NCBI RefSeq assembly: GCF_026625705.1
Contig: NZ_CP113059.1
Location: 186,001 to 250,000, forward strand
Length of the DNA: 64,000 nt
Source: Pedobacter sp. SL55
Lineage (GTDB): Bacteria; Bacteroidota; Bacteroidia; Sphingobacteriales; Sphingobacteriaceae
Direction: 5' to 3'
The translations under genes and the position numbers were made by a program. Under the pieces are notes generated by a model. The model was not told the DNA's origin and searched no databases. It saw only the letters and a program-made list of their open reading frames with translations. This document shows positions 3,096 to 10,750 of this stretch, in pieces (position 1 is the stretch's first letter; each line of letters starts with the position of its first letter).

Positions 3096-4259
3096 GTGGA
3101 TATCTCCTATATACTTAATGAGCTTGGCGAAGACCGAGAAAACTACTTCAATGCCATTGCTCCGCCTATTATCCAAACCAGTAATTTTAAATTTGACACC
3201 GTTGAGGATTTTCGCAATGCTTTGGCAGACGAATACCGAGGCAATTTATATTCTCGTGGTTTTAACCCTACCATTGATATTTTAAGAAAGAAACTTGCTG
3301 CACTTGATGGAGCTGAAGACGCCTTAGTTTTTGGAAGTGGCATTGCGGCCGTTACTATCCCGGTTTTGGCTTTATTGCAGCAAGGCGATGAAGTGATCTG
3401 CGTAGAAAATCCCTACAGTTGGACGATCAAGCTCTTTAATGATTTGTTACCGAAGTTTGGCATCCGCACCACTTTTGTAGACGGCAGCCACACTGATGCA
3501 ATAGAAAATGCCATTACCTCTAAAACCAAATTAATTTACCTCGAATCGCCTAATACTTTTAGCTTCGATGTACAAGATTTAGAAGCCATAGCCAACATAG
3601 CAAAAGCCAAAAACATCATTACGATGATTGATAACAGCTATTGTTCGCCACTTTACCAGCAGCCTATTGCGTATGGAATTGATTTGGTAGCACAATCGGC
3701 AACTAAATACTTGGCAGGCCATAGCGATGTGATAGCTGGCGTAGTTACAGGGAAAAAAGAACTGCTCAAGCGCATATTTGAGAAAGAATACATGAACATT
3801 GGTGCCTCTGTAGCACCGCAAAATGCTTGGTTGCTGCTTAGAAGTTTGCGCACTTTACCTATCCGTTTAGAAAAGATAACAGCAAACGCCAACAAAGTAA
3901 TCGAATACCTAGAACAGCATCCTAAGGTTAAGAAAAGCTTACTTCATCCATTTAATAAGAACAGCAAGCAATTAGATTTAGCTAAAAAGCAGATGAAAGC
4001 TTGCGGTGGTCTTTTTAGCATTGTACTTAAAAATTCGAGTTTAGAAAAGATAGAAGCATTTTGCAATGGCTTAAAACATATTTTGATGGCTGTGTCCTGG
4101 GGTGGATACGAAAGTTTAATTATCCCTGCTTGTGCTGGCGTTAGCAAAGCTGATTTTGATCTTAATAACCCAAGGCACGTTTTAATTCGGGTTTACGTTG
4201 GCTTAGAAGAACCTGAATATTTGATTAGAGATTTGGAGGGAGCTTTGGAGAAAATCTAG
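3096..4259 (+). CDS. PLP-dependent trans-sulfuration enzyme (Cys/Met metabolism family)
   Basis: 387-residue fold-type I PLP enzyme of the cystathionine gamma-synthase / gamma-lyase / methionine gamma-lyase family. Visible motifs are APPIIQTS near residue 22, YSRGFNPT (residues 52-59; Tyr and Arg contact the neighbouring subunit's PLP phosphate), FGSGIAA near 79, the cofactor Asp179 in MIDNSY, and the Schiff-base Lys204 in SATKYLAGH. The start is GTG at 3096, chosen because the N-terminus before the PPIxQTS motif then has the normal short length; the first in-frame ATG would truncate the enzyme. It follows the permease by 48 bases. The exact reaction (synthase or lyase, and the substrate) cannot be decided. 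A strong inverted repeat follows the stop. Confidence 0.86.
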   Translation: MDISYILNELGEDRENYFNAIAPPIIQTSNFKFDTVEDFRNALADEYRGNLYSRGFNPTIDILRKKLAALDGAEDALVFGSGIAAVTIPVLALLQQGDEVICVENPYSWTIKLFNDLLPKFGIRTTFVDGSHTDAIENAITSKTKLIYLESPNTFSFDVQDLEAIANIAKAKNIITMIDNSYCSPLYQQPIAYGIDLVAQSATKYLAGHSDVIAGVVTGKKELLKRIFEKEYMNIGASVAPQNAWLLLRSLRTLPIRLEKITANANKVIEYLEQHPKVKKSLLHPFNKNSKQLDLAKKQMKACGGLFSIVLKNSSLEKIEAFCNGLKHILMAVSWGGYESLIIPACAGVSKADFDLNNPRHVLIRVYVGLEEPEYLIRDLEGALEKI

Positions 4260-4299: not shown

Positions 4300-4313
4300 T
4301 GTAGTTTTATTAC

Positions 4314-4334
4314 GCATATATATAAGTTATATGC
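4314..4334. other. Left boundary of the cassette array (attachment-like core)
   Basis: GCATATA at 4314-4320 and TATATGC at 4328-4334 form a short inverted repeat around the core GTTATATGC (4326-4334). The same core, inverted, is found at the end of the first cassette (GCATATAAC, 5126-5134). No full 136-bp hairpin precedes it. It therefore sits where an attI-like primary site would lie in an integron. The function is inferred from position and pairing. Confidence 0.5.
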
Positions 4335-4367
4335 TATGGTAGGACAACACACAACAACGAAAGGACA

Positions 4368-5108
4368 ATGACGAAAATATTAGCATACTGCTTTGACAAA
4401 TGGTGGCGACCTGTTCTTGTGTTTGGGCTGACAGTTTTAATTATGGTTTTGTGTGAGTTGACAAATATCCACAAACTACAAGACTACTCTTTTCTGTTAT
4501 TTGTACTTGGATTTTTAGGACTAATCATTTCGACAATATATCAGTTAGTAAAAAGACGCTGGCGTTTTGCAATCTTGACCACAACAATTATTGGAGTTTC
4601 ATTGGTTGTATTTTTCTTTTATTCAATAGCCTTGTTTTGGAAAGACCAATCAATGCCGGATACATACGCTGACAATTTAAAAATTCCGACAAATCTAAAA
4701 ATTAACGAGCCACTTGACCAAACTGAACCAACCAACATTGCAGACATTGACTTTTACATTTACAACTCCTTTCAACCAGGACTTTATTCATATGCTGTTT
4801 GGACGAAAAAAATTGAGAGTGGTTATTGCTATTTAAAAGCATTTGAAGTTACACACAACGACCCTTTATCAGCAGACAGACTTAAAGAAAGAAGTAAAAT
4901 AAAAGTTTTTAATTCAAGTGATACGACAGCAAAGTTTGAGATGACTGCAAGAAAAGGTTATAGTGCAGAAGGTGATTTTACTATTTATGAAGGAGATTGG
5001 GGTAAACCTTATGCAGCAAGATTTGAAGTTTGGTTTGTTCCCGACAACGGTGGGAAAGAACGAAAACTAATTGAAAAATACTATAAAATTGAAGGATGGC
5101 AACGGTGA
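4368..5108 (+). CDS. Hypothetical membrane protein (cassette 1 cargo)
   Basis: 246 residues, not recognised. Three hydrophobic helices are visible in the first 90 residues (about 13-31, 42-60 and 68-92), followed by a soluble domain with aromatic-rich beta strands (FYIYNSFQPGLYSYAVW near 127, DFTIYEGDWGKPYAARFEVWF near 205). That domain probably faces the periplasm. It is the only gene of the first cassette, preceded by the GTTATATGC boundary by 33 bases and followed within 18 bases by the hairpin element. This compact layout is typical of cassette genes. No function is proposed. Confidence 0.65.
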   Translation: MTKILAYCFDKWWRPVLVFGLTVLIMVLCELTNIHKLQDYSFLLFVLGFLGLIISTIYQLVKRRWRFAILTTTIIGVSLVVFFFYSIALFWKDQSMPDTYADNLKIPTNLKINEPLDQTEPTNIADIDFYIYNSFQPGLYSYAVWTKKIESGYCYLKAFEVTHNDPLSADRLKERSKIKVFNSSDTTAKFEMTARKGYSAEGDFTIYEGDWGKPYAARFEVWFVPDNGGKERKLIEKYYKIEGWQR

Positions 5109-5125
5109 CGGATAAAAGAACCACA

Positions 5126-5261
5126 GCATATAACATCGGTTTGGCAATATGGCGGCTGAAGTGCTTCTATGAAACATTTGTGCAAGGTTCAACGGTTGTA
5201 ATTCTATTGAACTTTTGTGCTAAAAATCCGCCACATCGCCAAGCCGAAAAACGTTGTGTGC
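5126..5261. repeat. attC-like hairpin element 1 (136 bp)
   Basis: Left core GCATATAAC and right core GTTGTGTGC bracket 19-base arms (5137-5155 and its partner just before the right core). The arms match at 16 of 19 positions; the mismatches are at arm positions 4 (T/C), 10 (A/G) and 13 (A/G). An inner GTTCAA/TTGAAC hairpin and a GTGCT motif lie in the centre. Length, core layout and mismatch positions are the same as in the other two elements. Confidence 0.75.
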
Positions 5262-5304
5262 AATTTTACAGAGCCACTAACCAAAGACACAAACAAAGAA
5301 AAAA

Positions 5305-6240
5305 ATGGGAATATTCGACAAACTATTTGGAAGTAAAATAGAAAACCAAAAACCTATCGAAATTGACTTTACTAAAAACGGAATTGTTTTAAACGGACGA
5401 AATAACCAATTGCCAGTAAAAATTTCAATTTTAAACGAAATTTTTGGAGAACCAGAAGAGGTTAAAACCGAAACCAATTTTCTGTATATTTGGCAGGACA
5501 AGGGAATAAGAGGATTTTCAAAAGACAAAGAAAATATTTTCGAAGTAGATATTCAAATTATACAACTTGGTCAAAACCAATTTTTTCCACGACAACCCTT
5601 TTTAGGCAGTTTAAAAATTGAAGGAACCGATTACAAGAACTTCGTAAAAGTATCGCAAAATGATTATCTTTTTAAAGAGTATAAAATTGGAAATTCAGAA
5701 ATTCAAGTCAGATTGACTAAAGAAGAACCAAAATTAATTCGCTCAATTTCAATTGACATACAAGAAGAGGAAGAAGAATTAACTCAAAAAAAGGATTATA
5801 AACTCAAAAAAATATCTGGAGAAAAAATCGAATTTAAGGATTTCAATTTCAAACTTGCGATTATCGAAGAGCTGATGTATAATAAAGAGCTTTTAAAACC
5901 AAAATTCGATGTTTATGAATTTGCAGAAATAACAAAAATTAAAGGATTTAGCGCTACAGAAGGTGGATACGAGCCAATCCCCGAAGTTGTCGAATACTTC
6001 AAAGCATTAGAAATTGACAAAAAACTTGCTGAACAAGTAACTGAAATTTACCAAGATGGTGGAAATGAAATTTATGTGAATGTTACACCACAATGGGACG
6101 GAGAAGATGATGTATTCAATATTCAATCCTTTGACGACATTAAACACTTTCCTAATTTAAAGAAAATGACTTTATTTGAAACCGACAGTAAAGTTATCGA
6201 AGAACTTAAATCAAAAGGAATTGAGATAAAACCATTATAA
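5305..6240 (+). CDS. Hypothetical two-domain protein, C-terminus DUF6892-like (cassette 2 cargo)
   Basis: 311 residues, soluble, no signal peptide or membrane segment. The N-terminal half (residues 1-150) is beta-rich, with the start MGIFDKLFG often seen in small cytoplasmic proteins of this sort. An acidic linker (EEEEE near 152) follows. The C-terminal half (about 170-311) has DFNFKLAIIEELMY, a GGYEPIPEVVEYF segment and VTPQWDGEDDVFNI, which I recognise as resembling DUF6892 proteins that are often encoded in polymorphic-toxin or immunity contexts. That resemblance is from memory and not searched. It is the sole gene in cassette 2; its stop is 8 bases before the next hairpin element. The biochemical role is unknown. 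Confidence 0.65.
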   Translation: MGIFDKLFGSKIENQKPIEIDFTKNGIVLNGRNNQLPVKISILNEIFGEPEEVKTETNFLYIWQDKGIRGFSKDKENIFEVDIQIIQLGQNQFFPRQPFLGSLKIEGTDYKNFVKVSQNDYLFKEYKIGNSEIQVRLTKEEPKLIRSISIDIQEEEEELTQKKDYKLKKISGEKIEFKDFNFKLAIIEELMYNKELLKPKFDVYEFAEITKIKGFSATEGGYEPIPEVVEYFKALEIDKKLAEQVTEIYQDGGNEIYVNVTPQWDGEDDVFNIQSFDDIKHFPNLKKMTLFETDSKVIEELKSKGIEIKPL

Positions 6241-6247
6241 AAAAACT

Positions 6248-6383
6248 GCACACAACAAGGGTTTTGCAATAGTGGGGCGAAACTGCAAAGTTCAACGGTA
6301 TTTCTTCGATTGAACTTTTATGCAAAATTGAAGTTTTGTGCTTTGATTGCCCCACCATCGCAAAGCCCCGAAACGTTACCTGC
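6248..6383. repeat. attC-like hairpin element 2 (136 bp)
   Basis: Left core GCACACAAC and right core GTTACCTGC. The 20-base arms match at 17 positions, with the three mismatches at arm positions 4 (T/C), 10 (A/G) and 13 (A/G), as in elements 1 and 3. The inner hairpin is GTTCAA/TTGAAC with a TTTTGTGCT motif to its right. The arm sequence differs from element 1 but pairing is kept. Confidence 0.75.
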
Positions 6384-6499
6384 TATGTTAGAACGACCGC
6401 ACAGAACGACACGTTTTGACCGACTGAAAACCGACATTTGCAGAACTAACGGGGAAAGCTGAAAACCGACCAGAGTAAGCACAAAAAACCAAAATCTAT

Positions 6500-6802
6500 A
6501 TGAATATTTTACAAATCAAAAGCGGTAAAATTGAAATCCGCAAAGACAACGGTTCTTTAGTTAGGACAATCGGAAATGGTGATGCAATTTCCGCAGACTT
6601 TAATTCTGACCAGTCATTAGTTGCAATCACAACTGTAAAAGGAAAGGTTGAAATTCGTAAAGATAATGGCTCTTTAGTTCGAACAATTGGCAACGGAGAT
6701 GCAACGAATGCAAGATGGCACGGTTCAGACATTGCTATAACAACGACAAAAGGGAAAACCGAATTGAGAAAAGAAAACGGCTCACTAATACGAACTTTAT
6801 AA
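6500..6802 (+). CDS. Short repeat protein of three KGKxExRKENGSLxRT units (cassette 3 cargo)
   Basis: 100 residues built almost wholly from three tandem copies of a ~33-residue unit, at about 8-40, 47-77 and 84-100. Each unit contains (K/S)GK-x-E(I/L)RK(D/E)NGSL(V/I)RT followed in the first two by IGNGDA and a beta-like segment ending AITT. The pattern suggests beta-hairpin or blade-like repeats, as in a WD-type propeller fragment, but three blades cannot close a propeller, so oligomerisation or binding to a partner is likely (inference). There is no signal peptide. It lies upstream of the GmrSD-like gene in the same cassette, with a perfect hairpin between them. Function unknown. Confidence 0.6.
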   Translation: MNILQIKSGKIEIRKDNGSLVRTIGNGDAISADFNSDQSLVAITTVKGKVEIRKDNGSLVRTIGNGDATNARWHGSDIAITTTKGKTELRKENGSLIRTL

Positions 6803-6817
6803 GTAAAAATCATAATT

Positions 6818-6840
6818 CAAAGGTGGCTTCGCCACCTTTG
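6818..6840 (+). terminator. Perfect hairpin between the two genes of cassette 3
   Basis: A 10-bp stem CAAAGGTGGC / GCCACCTTTG with the loop TTC, 15 bases after the repeat-protein stop and 23 bases before the next ATG. There is no long T run, so it may attenuate or stabilise a transcript rather than fully terminate it. Confidence 0.5.
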
Positions 6841-6863
6841 ATATTTTCAAGCACATAGATTAT

Positions 6864-8708
6864 ATGGAGAAAAAGACATTATCGAATATTTTAGAGGGAA
6901 AAATTTTTCAAATTCCCGATTACCAAAGAGGATATGCTTGGGAAGCAAAACAATGGAAAGATTTTGTACAAGATATTGACGCATTAATTGATGACAAAAT
7001 AATTAGCCATTATACTGGAACTATTGTTATTTATCAGCCAATTGACAAACCGACAGAAAACTATGGCACAAAGAAACTTGAAATAGTTGATATTGTTGAT
7101 GGACAGCAACGACTAACAACTTGTAGTCTTTATTTATCAATTATTCTAAAAGAACTAATAAATGTTAGCGAGGAAGATTTTACAACGGAAATACCAATTT
7201 ACTTACATTCGGGAAGTAAAAGCAAACTTAGGCTAAACAATGATACTGCTGATTTTTATTTAGATTTAGTTTCTAAAGGGGTTAGTAATATTGAACCGAA
7301 CTCGGTTCATCAAAAGAGAATTTATGAAGCATATTGTTTTTTGAAAAAGCATATCGAAGAACAATTAGAAATAAGAGCAGAGAAAGGCGAAGAATATTTG
7401 AAAGATTTGTTTGACGCTATAATTCGAAAATTAAATTTTTCATTTTATCCAATTGAAGTAGAAAGTGAAATAGGGATGACTTTTGAGTTAATGAACTCAA
7501 GAGGAAAGGATTTATCATCTATGGAACTGCTCAAAAACTATTTGATGTATTGGGTTTACAGAAATATTCAAGATATTTCAGAAAAAGAAGATTTCACCAA
7601 AACAATTAACAAAACTTGGAAAGAAGTTTATGTAAACATTGCAAAATGTAATGGTAGTGAAAGTCAATGTTTACGAATTGCTTGGACTTTGTTCGTTAAT
7701 TATACACCAAAAAATTGGGATGGTTACAGCGGTTTTAAATCAGATGATGTAATTCCTTTACGAAATTTTTTAGTTAAAAGTAAAGAGGAAGTAAAGAGTT
7801 TTCTTTTACAATTTGTAGATGGACTTGCTTTAATTTCTAAACATTATTCGGCAATTCTTAAATCTAACAATAGTGCATTTGATGAAAACGAATTAAATCT
7901 ATTGACTAAAATCCGAAATGCAGGAAATATTGCCAATTATCTTCCATTAATGGTTGCTTCTAGAATTAAACGTGAAAATAACGAAACTTTAAATGAGGAA
8001 TATATTGGACTTTTAAAGTCACTTGAAATGTTTTCATACAGAGTATTTCTTTGGGAAGGAAAACGAAGTAATGCTGGATTATCAAAATTCTATCGTTGGG
8101 CTGATGATATTTTTGCTTCAAAACATTCTTTACAATCTGTTACGGAATGGATTTACGGCACAATCAATTGGTATTCGCCAGAAAATGGTTTCCGAAAATC
8201 TCTAACTGAAGATTTTTTCGAGTGGTATCATCACAGAAGATTATTAAAATACACACTTTTTGAGTTTGAACTTTTTCTATTGAAAGGCAAAAACAAACCA
8301 AAATTGAATTGGGAAGATTTAACCGACTCTACAATCGAGCATATTTTACCCCAAAATCCAGACGTAAATTCAAATTGGATTTCTAAATGGACAGACGAAG
8401 AACGAAAGAAATTTATACACGACATTTCAAATTTAGTACTGACAAAAGATAATTCACGATACAGCAATTTTGAATTTGAAAGAAAAAAAGGAATTGCAGG
8501 TTCAGGATACTCTTACTCAAATTCAGACATAAGACAAGAACGGAAAATTGCGGAATTTGACGATTGGACACCTGAAAACCGAAGTATAAGAAGAAAGGAA
8601 TTAACAAGTTGGATTATCGGAAATTGGGGTATTGACAGACATTTTCAAGCACCGACAGACGACATAATTGAGGACGAAGAAGAACCGATTTTTAATGACA
8701 TCGACTAA
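6864..8708 (+). CDS. GmrSD-like DUF262/DUF1524 protein, probable phage-defence nuclease (cassette 3 cargo)
   Basis: 614 residues. The N-terminal DUF262 (ParB/sulfiredoxin-like) domain shows IPDYQRGYAW (residues 17-26) and the diagnostic DGQQRLTT (79-86). The C-terminal DUF1524 (HNH-type) domain shows EHILPQNP near residue 491, then NLVLTKDNSRYSNFEF, the usual His and Asn/His pattern of this nuclease superfamily. Both halves of GmrS and GmrD are fused in one chain. The family includes type IV restriction enzymes that cleave modified phage DNA with NTP hydrolysis. It is the longest cassette cargo and ends 7 bases before the hairpin element. The domain call is good; actual restriction activity and specificity are inferred. 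Confidence 0.85.
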   Translation: MEKKTLSNILEGKIFQIPDYQRGYAWEAKQWKDFVQDIDALIDDKIISHYTGTIVIYQPIDKPTENYGTKKLEIVDIVDGQQRLTTCSLYLSIILKELINVSEEDFTTEIPIYLHSGSKSKLRLNNDTADFYLDLVSKGVSNIEPNSVHQKRIYEAYCFLKKHIEEQLEIRAEKGEEYLKDLFDAIIRKLNFSFYPIEVESEIGMTFELMNSRGKDLSSMELLKNYLMYWVYRNIQDISEKEDFTKTINKTWKEVYVNIAKCNGSESQCLRIAWTLFVNYTPKNWDGYSGFKSDDVIPLRNFLVKSKEEVKSFLLQFVDGLALISKHYSAILKSNNSAFDENELNLLTKIRNAGNIANYLPLMVASRIKRENNETLNEEYIGLLKSLEMFSYRVFLWEGKRSNAGLSKFYRWADDIFASKHSLQSVTEWIYGTINWYSPENGFRKSLTEDFFEWYHHRRLLKYTLFEFELFLLKGKNKPKLNWEDLTDSTIEHILPQNPDVNSNWISKWTDEERKKFIHDISNLVLTKDNSRYSNFEFERKKGIAGSGYSYSNSDIRQERKIAEFDDWTPENRSIRRKELTSWIIGNWGIDRHFQAPTDDIIEDEEEPIFNDID

Positions 8709-8715
8709 CAACACA

Positions 8716-8851
8716 GCAGGTAACAGGCGTTTGGCAAAAAAGCGGGTTCAGTGCATACTTGAAGCTTTGTGCTTCGTATCAAGTTCAGTGCTGGCAGACA
8801 GTTTAGTGCTTCGAAATCCGCTTCTTCGCCAAGCGCCAAAACGTTAGGCAA
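8716..8851. repeat. attC-like hairpin element 3 (136 bp)
   Basis: Left core GCAGGTAAC and right core GTTAGGCAA. The 19-base arms again pair at all positions but three, which are arm positions 4 (T/C), 10 (A/G) and 13 (A/G). The centre carries a different hairpin (CTTGA...TCAAG around AGC/GCT-rich bases) and a TTTAGTGCT motif. This is the last complete element of the array. Confidence 0.75.
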
Positions 8852-8860
8852 CATTTTAAA

Positions 8861-9145
8861 ATGAACATTTTCAACAGAAAGGCAAAAAAGAAACATATCG
8901 AACAATTCGAACACAATGTGGCTGAATTGTTAGAAACTGCAATGCCTCAAATTAACACAGCAATTGGACTTTCCAAAATTTATGGAATTAGTTTTATGCA
9001 CAAGCCGAATGGGATTTATATTTCTCGCGGATACAACACCCGCTCTTCCAGATTTGTAATCTGGAAGCCTATCGAAGGATTTGTAATCCTTAATACATTA
9101 CAACATATACTAATTCGCGATTACCAATTACGAACAGCAGATTAA
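8861..9145 (+). CDS. Small hypothetical protein (cassette 4 cargo)
   Basis: 94 residues, not recognised. It starts with a basic stretch (MNIFNRKAKKKH) followed by an amphipathic helix, then beta-like segments ending QLRTAD. No membrane segment is seen. It begins 9 bases after the hairpin element, as expected for a cassette gene, but its downstream side has no fourth hairpin element. This cassette may be truncated, or the array may end here by decay. The gene could itself be shortened. Confidence 0.5.
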   Translation: MNIFNRKAKKKHIEQFEHNVAELLETAMPQINTAIGLSKIYGISFMHKPNGIYISRGYNTRSSRFVIWKPIEGFVILNTLQHILIRDYQLRTAD

Positions 9146-9192: not shown

Positions 9193-9220
9193 GTGTTGTA
9201 TTGCAATCGCTTCGTTTACC

Positions 9221-9290
9221 AAACCCGATTGCAACGGCAGCCCCGAGAGAGCGTTTGCGAACGCGGGCTACAGTGTAAAGCGGGACCGCA
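9221..9290. repeat. Interspersed palindromic repeat (CCCGATTG...GTAAAGCGGGAC family)
   Basis: It begins ACCCGATTGCAACGG, has nested inverted repeats (AGCCC/GGGCT and GCGTT/AACGC around 9238-9269), and ends TACAGTGTAAAGCGGGAC. The same flanks recur at 52138-52279 in this window. It fills the gap between the last cassette and rhlE. Confidence 0.6.
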
Positions 9291-9355
9291 ATTGCAATGA
9301 AACACTGCCAATCATTTCAAAAAAATCAACAAAACCGCTATCCAATAAATTTCTG

Positions 9356-9363: not shown

Positions 9364-9499
9364 CCACTCGAAGCTGAATTTCTTTAATCATTAAAGCAAC
9401 TCGCAAGTTAGTCCTTCTTAAAAAATGATTGTTCTAGCTTCTTCGAATTTTAAAGTGTGATACATGCACTTTTTAATTTTTACTTTAAACTTAGAAAAA

Positions 9500-10750
9500 A
9501 TGTTATTTTCAGAATTGAGGCTTATTGAGCCTATATTAAAAGCTGTTGAATCCGAAGGATATCAAAAGCCAACTCCCATACAGGAAAAAGCTATTCCTAG
9601 CATCTTAAAATTGAAAGATTTATTGGGTTGCGCACAAACTGGAACTGGTAAAACTGCCGCTTTTGCGATACCGATGTTGCAAATTTTGCACATGCGCCAT
9701 TTAAAAACCAATAAAAAAGCAATTAAAGCATTGGTGTTAACGCCAACAAGAGAGCTTGCTATCCAAATACAAGATAGCTTTAACGCTTACGGCAAAAATT
9801 TACCAGTAAAAAATTTAGTTATTTTTGGAGGTGTGGGCCAGCAACCACAAGTAGATGCACTTAGAAAAGGGGTAGATATTTTAGTGGCTACGCCAGGCAG
9901 GCTACTAGACTTGATGAACCAAGGCCATATTAGCCTTAGCGACATCGAAATTTTTGTGCTAGATGAAGCCGACCGTATGTTGGACATGGGTTTCATCCAC
10001 GATGTGAAGAAAATTGTAGCCAAACTTCCTGCTAAAAGACAAACGTTATTTTTCTCGGCAACTATGCCTCCAGAAATCGAAAAATTGGCTAATGCCATAT
10101 TGCAAGATCCTGTGAAAGTAGAGGTTACTCCGGTGTCTTCTACCGCAGAAACCATTAACCAATCGGTATATTTTGTAGATAAGCCCGACAAAAGAAAATT
10201 ACTAAAACACCTTTTAGACGACCTTAAAATAGACCACACGCTGGTTTTTACCCGCACAAAACACGGCGCAGACCGTATTGCTAGAGATTTAGCAAAAGAT
10301 GGGATTAAAGCGGCGGCTATACACGGCGACAAGTCGCAAGGGGCAAGACAAAGAGCTTTAACAGAATTTAAAGATAGAAAACTTAAAGTTTTGGTAGCTA
10401 CTGATATTGCTGCCCGTGGGATAGACATAGATGAGTTAAGTTATGTTTTCAACTACGATCTGCCAAACATCCCAGAAACTTATGTGCATAGAATTGGACG
10501 TACCGGCCGAGCTGGCGCTAACGGAACAGCGATTTCTTTTGTAGACGCCGAAGAAAATGAATACCTGCTTGACATTCATAAGCTGATTAAACGTACCATT
10601 CCAATTGTAGAAAACCATCCGTATCCGCTAAGCTGGAAAAGCATGTTGGCCAACAAGGAAGTACAACGCAAACCGCAAAAAGATTCGAAAGGGAATGCGG
10701 CTGGCAATAAGAAAAAGGTTTTTAAAGGTGGCGGCAATAAACGCCGATAA
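9500..10750 (+). CDS. rhlE: DEAD-box ATP-dependent RNA helicase, RhlE type
   Basis: 416-residue cytoplasmic RNA helicase acting in rRNA maturation or RNA decay. Conserved motifs in order are the Q motif (GYQKPTPIQ, near 20-28), motif I AQTGTGKT (45-52), PTRELA, motif II DEAD followed by RMLDMGF, motif III SAT, motif V ATDIAARGIDI and motif VI HRIGRTGRAG. The short basic Gly/Lys tail (KKKVFKGGGNKRR) is typical of RhlE and probably contacts RNA. The ATG at 9500 is chosen because the RhlE family begins just before F-x-x-L; an upstream in-frame start at 9464 would add twelve hydrophobic residues unlike the family. It is monocistronic, with a terminator shared with the convergent desaturase gene. 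Confidence 0.93.
   Translation: MLFSELRLIEPILKAVESEGYQKPTPIQEKAIPSILKLKDLLGCAQTGTGKTAAFAIPMLQILHMRHLKTNKKAIKALVLTPTRELAIQIQDSFNAYGKNLPVKNLVIFGGVGQQPQVDALRKGVDILVATPGRLLDLMNQGHISLSDIEIFVLDEADRMLDMGFIHDVKKIVAKLPAKRQTLFFSATMPPEIEKLANAILQDPVKVEVTPVSSTAETINQSVYFVDKPDKRKLLKHLLDDLKIDHTLVFTRTKHGADRIARDLAKDGIKAAAIHGDKSQGARQRALTEFKDRKLKVLVATDIAARGIDIDELSYVFNYDLPNIPETYVHRIGRTGRAGANGTAISFVDAEENEYLLDIHKLIKRTIPIVENHPYPLSWKSMLANKEVQRKPQKDSKGNAAGNKKKVFKGGGNKRR

What the first reader, a model, noticed from the sequence alone, without database searches (positions are those of the whole stretch)
4326..9145. Integron-like cassette array with non-classical cores and self-complementary cassette ends
Three cassettes each start with GTT-N4-GC and end in the exact reverse complement: GTTATATGC with GCATATAAC, GTTGTGTGC with GCACACAAC, GTTACCTGC with GCAGGTAAC. 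The N4 differs between cassettes but matches within each one. That is what is expected if a cassette is excised as a circle whose two ends form one site. Extended by five bases, the match continues in all three with one conserved T/C mismatch at the same place. Classical integrons use GTTRRRY, and ATAT, GTGT and ACCT do not fit, so this may be an undescribed variant or a different recombination system.
Basis: partly seen in the sequence, partly recalled or inferred. Interest (0 to 1): 0.92.

Follow-up and report, generated by a model that had tools for sequence, protein, structure and literature searches.

The report
Integron-like gene cassette system of Bacteroidia
The window holds a run of movable gene cassettes belonging to an apparently undescribed integron-like gene-capture system that is widespread in Bacteroidia and uses its own integrase, target site and hairpin-forming cassette ends.

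Summary
In the window only 3 of 101,395 GTT..AAC pairs match at 14 or more of 15 positions: the three reported cassettes. The 136-bp elements are hairpin sites with strong covariation. Elsewhere in the genome a 352-aa tyrosine recombinase is followed by an attI-like site and the same kind of cassettes. In 80 named loci with this integrase plus the own one, 178 of 180 elements lie downstream of it, in its direction. Of 123 cassettes, 98 match their own end at all six variable bases; random pairing gives 1.9. Near-identical attI sites switch to different cassettes at GTT. Elements occur in 220 of 296 sampled Bacteroidia genomes. The window array is a cluster without integrase, behind an attI-like TATA..A|GTT site. 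The integrase lacks the 41-residue IntI insert, few cores fit GTTRRRY, and integrase and array are parallel: it works like an integron but fails defining features of an IntI integron. The blaVEB-1 cassette of class 1 integrons has this system's kind of ends and site. Nothing was tested by experiment, and the literature searched is partial.

The parts
4313..4328 (+). attI/attG-like insertion site of the array: TATA at -9..-6, A at -1, then GTT
   Evidence: same spacing in 38 of 40 attI sites next to an integrase
4326..5252 (+). cassette 1 (GTT to next GTT)
   Evidence: 14 of 15 self-complementary ends
4368..5108 (+). ORF of cassette 1, 246 aa, no Pfam match
5126..5261 (-). attC-like hairpin site 1 (R'' GCATATAAC to R' GTTGTGTGC); - is the strand modelled
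   Evidence: 115.8 bits
5253..6374 (+). cassette 2
   Evidence: 14 of 15 self-complementary ends
5305..6240 (+). ORF of cassette 2, 311 aa, DUF7738 + DUF6892
6248..6383 (-). attC-like hairpin site 2
   Evidence: 121.4 bits
6375..8842 (+). cassette 3, two ORFs
   Evidence: 14 of 15 self-complementary ends
6500..6802 (+). ORF of cassette 3, 100 aa, IceA2-like
6864..8708 (+). ORF of cassette 3, 614 aa, GmrSD type restriction endonuclease
8716..8851 (-). attC-like hairpin site 3
   Evidence: 126.1 bits
8843..9035 (+). cassette 4 remnant without a site at its end; right border approximate
8861..9145 (+). ORF 94 aa, probably chimeric: cassette 4 start plus sequence native to the place
3096..4259 (+). 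left flank gene (PLP-dependent Cys/Met enzyme), neighbour of the right flank gene in relatives without the array
9464..10750 (+). right flank gene (DEAD-box helicase-like, named by eye from its sequence)

Best explanation
The block is a cassette array without its own integrase (a CALIN-like cluster) of an integron-like system of Bacteroidia. SHOWN by comparison: a 352-aa tyrosine recombinase (G000:C1:4300632-4301690) is followed, in the same direction, by an attI-like stretch of about 100 bp ending TATA-N4-A|GTT and by cassettes; a cassette is one unit from GTT to GTT, mostly one ORF in the same direction, ending in a hairpin site of about 136 bp; its first 15 bases are complementary to the 15 bases that end at its own AAC, with a fixed mismatch at position 11; cassettes differ between near-identical attI sites from the GTT on; outside attI, some first cassettes sit behind the same TATA..A|GTT motif. 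INFERRED: the integrase cuts at or next to G^TT, excises a cassette as a circle whose joined ends make one long hairpin (outer 15-bp arm, AAC/GTT, spacer, inner stem of about 19 positions), recognises it mainly by its fold, probably on the bottom strand, and inserts it at attI or, less often, at attI-like places in the chromosome. The window array arose by such an off-site insertion and further additions; its right end was later lost by deletion.
For: Own integron. Architecture: 178 of 180 elements downstream of the integrase and in its direction (80 named loci plus L009; 46 of the 80 have an element; of the other 34, 22 end within 350 bp of the integrase match). Structure: 93.8% of cells paired, 730 cells with double changes against 229 in shuffles (0 of 500 as high) and 54-138 in slid versions. 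Unit: 98 of 123 cassettes have all six variable bases matching their own end, random pairing mean 1.85 and at most 8 in 1000 runs, neighbouring cassettes 9 of 160; the match stops after position 15. ORFs: longest ORF on the + strand in 128, on the - strand in 7, none of 50 aa in 16 of 151. attI: TATA at -9..-6 in 38 of 40, against 3 of 587 GTTs in the integrase genes. Swap at GTT: L009/L070 96 of 100 before, 36 of 100 after; L111/L129 93 and 34. Shared cassettes bounded near GTT: L090/L108, L123/L142. Elements in 17 of 17 genomes with an integrase match of 194 bits or more (my threshold, own genome included) and in 22 of 42 others, Fisher p 0.0002. Fold energy: bottom strand more stable than top in 131 of 141 modelled circles, 105 of 141 in array form.
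Against: No recombination, circle or single strand was observed. The integrase is about 330 kb away if the contig is circular (arithmetic; not tested). 25 of 123 cassettes do not match at all six bases, several at three or more. 22 of 42 genomes without such an integrase match still have elements. A Chryseobacterium plasmid (L236) has the integrase and an attI-like end but no element within the 7 kb fetched, and L094 has 5.1 kb downstream without one. In array form element 1 folds little better than shuffles (z -1.03 top, -1.97 bottom). 3 of 500 shuffles reach the observed number of pairs with a double change. No base-exact empty site for the window array. 7 minus-strand and 16 ORF-less cassettes of 151 do not fit the simple picture. 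Starts of two dispersed single cassettes of the own genome (L165, L167) were not found and one site reads TATT, not TATA (L164).
Confidence: 0.86

Rival explanations
1. A canonical cluster of attC sites (CALIN) of an IntI integrase, merely with unusual cores.
For: Palindrome, AAC/GTT cores and a boundary at GTT as in classical sites; a core outside GTTRRRY exists in a class 1 cassette too (arr-2); canonical IntI is over the cut-off in 85 of 296 genomes of the phylum and 7 of 25 such genomes also have these elements.
Against: No IntI over the cut-off in the own genome and no match in the own genus or family; the elements stand next to another integrase with 59-60 residues where 22 of 22 IntI have 101; 9 of 170 cores fit GTTRRRY; the model of these elements hits only the blaVEB-1 site in two class 1 stretches at E up to 10.
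Confidence: 0.05
2. A dispersed structured repeat (RNA terminator, cis-regulatory RNA or REP-like element) after genes, not a recombination site.
For: The element lies just after stop codons; covariation alone would also fit an RNA.
Against: Does not explain the 15-bp link between a unit's start and its own end, the position behind one integrase in 178 of 180 cases or the sequence change at GTT. No Rfam match at the three elements at E up to 1.
Confidence: 0.03
3. The cassettes are moved by another enzyme (XerC/XerD, an IS91-type HUH transposase or another), and the integrase is only a hitch-hiker.
For: Xer-like recombinases are in the genomes too; related recombinases stand beside IS91-family transposases on plasmids.
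Against: Elements follow this integrase with a conserved attI-like stretch in between and occur in 17 of 17 genomes that have it. Whether any transposase is regularly near the arrays was not tested.
Confidence: 0.06

Closest known systems
Integrons with IntI (class 1 and chromosomal integrons)
   Same: Integrase + attI + array of mostly single-ORF cassettes, each ending in an imperfect palindrome bounded by AAC and GTT; cassette start complementary to its own end; clusters without integrase; off-site insertions.
   Different: Integrase lacks the 41-residue IntI insert; cores rarely GTTRRRY (9 of 170); complementarity 15 bp with a fixed mismatch at 11, against 8 bp in arr-2, cmlA5 and dfrA14 and 12 bp in aadB (aac(6')-Ib was not paired reliably); asymmetry by mismatches rather than clear extrahelical bases; integrase parallel to the array.
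'Reverse' integron of Treponema
   Same: intI transcribed toward attI and in the direction of the cassettes (PMC3607928 and PMC4909258, passages read).
   Different: Described there with intI; host phylum differs. Not compared here by sequence.
attG sites (Loot et al. 2024, as cited in PMC12901181; passages of the latter read)
   Same: Cassettes inserted into the chromosome outside attI.
   Different: Here the off-site targets resemble the system's own attI (TATA..A|GTT); I have not read the attG paper.
Archaeal XerA and bacterial XerC/XerD recombinases
   Same: Same fold and no IntI insert; XerA (5hxy, 4a8e) and IntI4 (2a3v) are the best matches among solved structures by sequence and fold. 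NCBIfam's nearest model is XerA-like NF040815, named 'site-specific tyrosine recombinase/integron integrase', 219.5 bits against a cut-off of 220.
   Different: Own-genome and relatives' Xer-like matches are at 130 bits or less; 65-67 residues in the compared segment in the 8 Xer used; separate branch. No array was sought beside Xer genes.

Membership tests
IntI integron | Integrase with the IntI-specific additional domain | tested here: not met
   KDR-to-H segment 59-60 residues in 34 of 34 new integrases, 101 in 22 of 22 IntI; TIGR02249 194 bits, cut-off 265; gap opposite 2A3V
IntI integron | Integrase within the IntI clade | tested here: not met
   22 IntI rows form one clade (SH-aLRT 100); new integrases and relatives on another branch (93, not starred); quick tree with Xer as the only other group, so a sister relation to IntI is open
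IntI integron | R' core GTTRRRY | tested here: not met
   9 of 170; arr-2 in a class 1 integron also departs
IntI integron | attC as imperfect palindrome conserved in structure rather than sequence | tested here: met
IntI integron | Extrahelical bases that set strand choice | tested here: inconclusive
   Conserved mismatch (C in 104 of 122 facing A in 85 of 122) in the inner stem and a fixed mismatch at position 11 of the outer arm; no bulge model was tested
IntI integron | attI next to the integrase, cassettes inserted at GTT | tested here: met
   by comparison only:
IntI integron | Cassettes with one ORF in array direction, start complementary to own end | tested here: met
   128 + / 7 - / 16 none of 151; 98 of 123
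IntI integron | Divergent intI and array | tested here: not met
   parallel for 178 of 180 elements; not universal in integrons (Treponema)
IntI integron | Integrase-dependent excision and integration of folded single strands | not testable with these tools
   needs an experiment
IntI integron | Pc promoter driving the array | not tested
   -
CALIN (cluster of sites lacking an integrase) | Two or more sites less than 4 kb apart without an integrase gene nearby | tested here: met
   three sites in window 5126-8851; integrase elsewhere; definition as in PMC9668308, passage read. The sites are not classical attC

The most novel reading that the evidence does not exclude
Bacteroidia run a separate, class-wide kind of integron whose integrase recognises hairpins without the IntI insert (perhaps helped by its own N-terminal beta-beta-alpha-beta-beta-alpha domain, faintly HARP-like), and this system is the native home of resistance cassettes such as blaVEB, which IntI1 later captured because both systems exchange at the same GTT.
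Probability: 0.5. Interest if true: 0.95.

Novelty: new variant of a known kind. Interest (0 to 1): 0.87.

Why it matters
Integrons are on record for Bacteroidota in general (PMC8618304, PMC9668308, PMC2426708; passages), but IntegronFinder 2.0 names one complete integron in Bacteroidetes proper, in Salinibacter ruber (PMC9024848, passage read). Here sites of one kind are in 220 of 296 sampled Bacteroidia genomes, so a main route of gene exchange in this class may have been overlooked. The integrase lacks the domain that the title of Messier and Roy 2001 calls necessary for activity (seen in a reference list), so recognition of hairpin sites becomes testable with a second solution. The blaVEB-1 cassette in class 1 integrons carries this system's kind of site and ends, and a blaVEB-3 copy stands behind a fragment of such an integrase and an attI-like end with the boundary at GTT: a possible source of resistance cassettes; the direction of transfer is inferred.
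Full report
Setting. The window is G000:C1:186001-250000 of a 4.44-Mb genome in one contig, probably a Pedobacter: Pedobacter ureilyticus THG-T11 has an integrase 97% identical to the genome's own, and G033, labelled same genus, has on a contig of 167,646 bases the same integrase as record L132, titled Pedobacter sp. UBA4863, whose contig has that length too.

Observation. The three cassettes are as described, and unique in the window: 3 of 101,395 GTT..AAC pairs have 14 of 15 matches. The elements are 136 bp each and align along their length. As single-stranded DNA they fold into one long hairpin; z is -1.97, -3.24 and -3.51 on the bottom strand and -1.03, -2.59 and -2.26 on the top strand.

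What drives it. A search with TIGR02249 found a 352-aa tyrosine recombinase at G000:C1:4300632-4301690, below the IntI cut-off. Behind it, in the same direction, come GTATAAATAA|GTTGTGTGC, a 312-aa ORF, GCACACAAC and an element; then a cassette with a helicase-like ORF and an IS3-like insertion (both named by eye), ending GCTGATAAC and an element; then a short DUF262-like ORF. So the genome holds a whole system, and the window array is a cluster without integrase. Fourteen elements are in the genome at E up to 0.01, the two weakest at 1.5e-6 and 0.001.

Generality. A model of the three elements hits 39 of 59 genomes at E up to 0.01, the own included. Over these loci and L009, 178 of 180 elements are downstream of the integrase in its direction, one is upstream (L148) and one opposite at a contig end (L089); 46 of the 80 loci have an element, and 33 of the other 34 have under 2 kb downstream, L094 having 5.1 kb. 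The second model, from 122 elements, hits 220 of 296 Bacteroidia genomes, 129 of 165 genera, at E up to 1e-5, and 7 of 25 genomes with canonical IntI picked, 24 of these 25 from other classes. Canonical IntI is over the cut-off in 85 of 296 genomes of the phylum; of the 86 with a match at E up to 1e-60 one is labelled same class and 85 same phylum.

The site. 24 pairs over 122 sequences: 93.8% of cells paired; 730 cells with double changes against 229 (sd 10) in shuffles and 54-138 when slid; 22 pairs with a double change, reached by 3 of 500 shuffles. The alignment was fitted to this structure, which favours it. In the inner stem lies a conserved mismatch, C in 104 and A in 85 of 122.

The unit. 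In 123 neighbouring-site cassettes the start and the complement of the own end agree at positions 1-15 with frequencies 1, 1, 1.96.94.93.93.92.91.59.03.83.86.78.79; across one element, that is between two different cassettes, they are .36-.68 at positions 4-9. With first cassettes added, 153 of 164 have at least 5 of 6 core matches; in these the agreement falls from .81 at position 15 to .12 at 16 and stays at .12-.38 to position 60. So the arm is 15 bp with a fixed mismatch at 11. Median length is 682 bp; where a + strand ORF is longest it covers a median 91% of the cassette, starts a median 43 bases after GTT and stops a median 17 before the end of AAC; direction + in 128, - in 7, none in 16 of 151. 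Functions are mixed: in 51 ORFs (47 of 119 found, and four of the window) there are 57 Pfam families, of which 25 were shown, three in two members and 22 in one, among them beta-lactamase-like, streptomycin adenylyltransferase-like, PIN, OGG-like, SduA and GmrSD; defence-like matches, each of the 25 shown in one member, in PADLOC.

attI and insertion places. In 43 loci a first-cassette start was found by complementarity; in 40 it lies within 130 bp of the integrase match end, median 103.5; TATA stands at -9..-6 in 38 and A at -1 in 40 of these 40; in the last kilobase of the integrase side 3 of 587 GTTs have the pattern. In the own genome the first cassettes at the window place, L163 and L168 have TATA and that at L164 TATT at this spacing; L166 carries a second attI-like copy without a detected integrase; the starts at L165 and L167 were not found.

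Movement. L009 and L070: 96 of 100 identical before GTT, 36 of 100 after. L111 and L129: 93 and 34. Two cassettes near-identical between hosts (99.0% over 731 nt in L090 and L108, 96.1% over 613 in L123 and L142) are bounded within 16 bases of the two GTTs; three further pairs are 70-81% alike over 325-635 nt. The flanking genes of the window array are neighbours in eight relatives read (G066 247 bp apart by BLAST ends, and G162, G163, G086, G131, G167, G094, G078), without these cassettes and without an element; other sequence lies between the genes in most of them.

The integrase. R209, K234, H299, R302, H325 and Y334, the residues that I take for the catalytic set (recalled), are invariant or nearly so. 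It lacks the IntI insert (60 against 101 residues). In a quick tree IntI is one clade (100), the new integrases and relatives lie on one branch (93) and Xer on another (99); long branches and the lack of other outgroups leave a sister relation to IntI open. The AlphaFold2 model (pLDDT 80.1, pTM 0.52) is nearest to XerA 5hxy and IntI 2a3v. The wider family, down to 43% identity, can also stand before elements: G005:C14.

Plasmids and resistance genes. One Chryseobacterium plasmid carries an integrase (58.6% identity) with three elements behind it; a second (57.9%) has an attI-like end and a first cassette but no element within 7 kb. Of 68 plasmid records with a family member at E up to 1e-50, 49 are Acinetobacter. 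In the one read first, a shortened integrase stands before tet(X3), and the gene is followed by the start of an element cut by other sequence (E 0.0004). In Klebsiella an integrase fragment ending KSPFDDL is followed by GGATATTAGGGA|GTTAGCGGTAATTT and blaVEB-3, with no element found behind. blaVEB-1 in a class 1 integron is 928 of 930 identical from that GTT and 20 of 60 before it, has ends matching at 13 of 15 with mismatches at 11 and 15, and its site is hit by the model at E 8.7e-9 in both stretches read, while nothing else there is hit at E up to 10. In class 1 neighbours the matching end is 8 bp in arr-2, cmlA5 and dfrA14 and 12 bp in aadB. That the cassette went from Bacteroidia to class 1 integrons is inferred.

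Verdict. It works like an integron; by the tested features it is not an IntI integron. I rate it a new variant of a known kind, with the proviso that the literature I could search is partial.

Noticed in passing
window 6449-6481: Weak match to the DUF805b RNA family (18.4 bits, gathering 35.6) in the 5' part of cassette 3; might hint that some listed cis-regulatory RNAs are parts of cassette leaders.
   Followed up: no
window 9217-9291: Flavo-1 RNA-like match (35 bits, gathering 42) just right of the array.
   Followed up: no
L166, oriented position 5754 (G000:C1 about 3322247): Second attI-like copy, nearly identical to the one behind the integrase, followed by cassettes but no detected integrase.
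   Followed up: partly
L231 (G172:C1:1197000-1216000): A canonical IntI with an altered C-terminus lies next to elements of the new type, whose cassette direction points toward it.
   Followed up: partly
L009 7633-7857 (integrase residues 1-75): Conserved N-terminal domain with WS and WHLP motifs, beta-beta-alpha-beta-beta-alpha in the model; faint likeness to HARP and DUF5710.
   Followed up: partly
L238 5720-5855 and L240 2502-3578: blaVEB-3 behind an integrase fragment and attI-like end; blaVEB-1 cassette in a class 1 integron with this system's kind of site.
   Followed up: yes
L237 2826-5085: tet(X3) behind a shortened relative of the integrase and followed by the start of an element.
   Followed up: partly
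L148 2613-2748: The single element found upstream of an integrase in the 80 loci.
   Followed up: no
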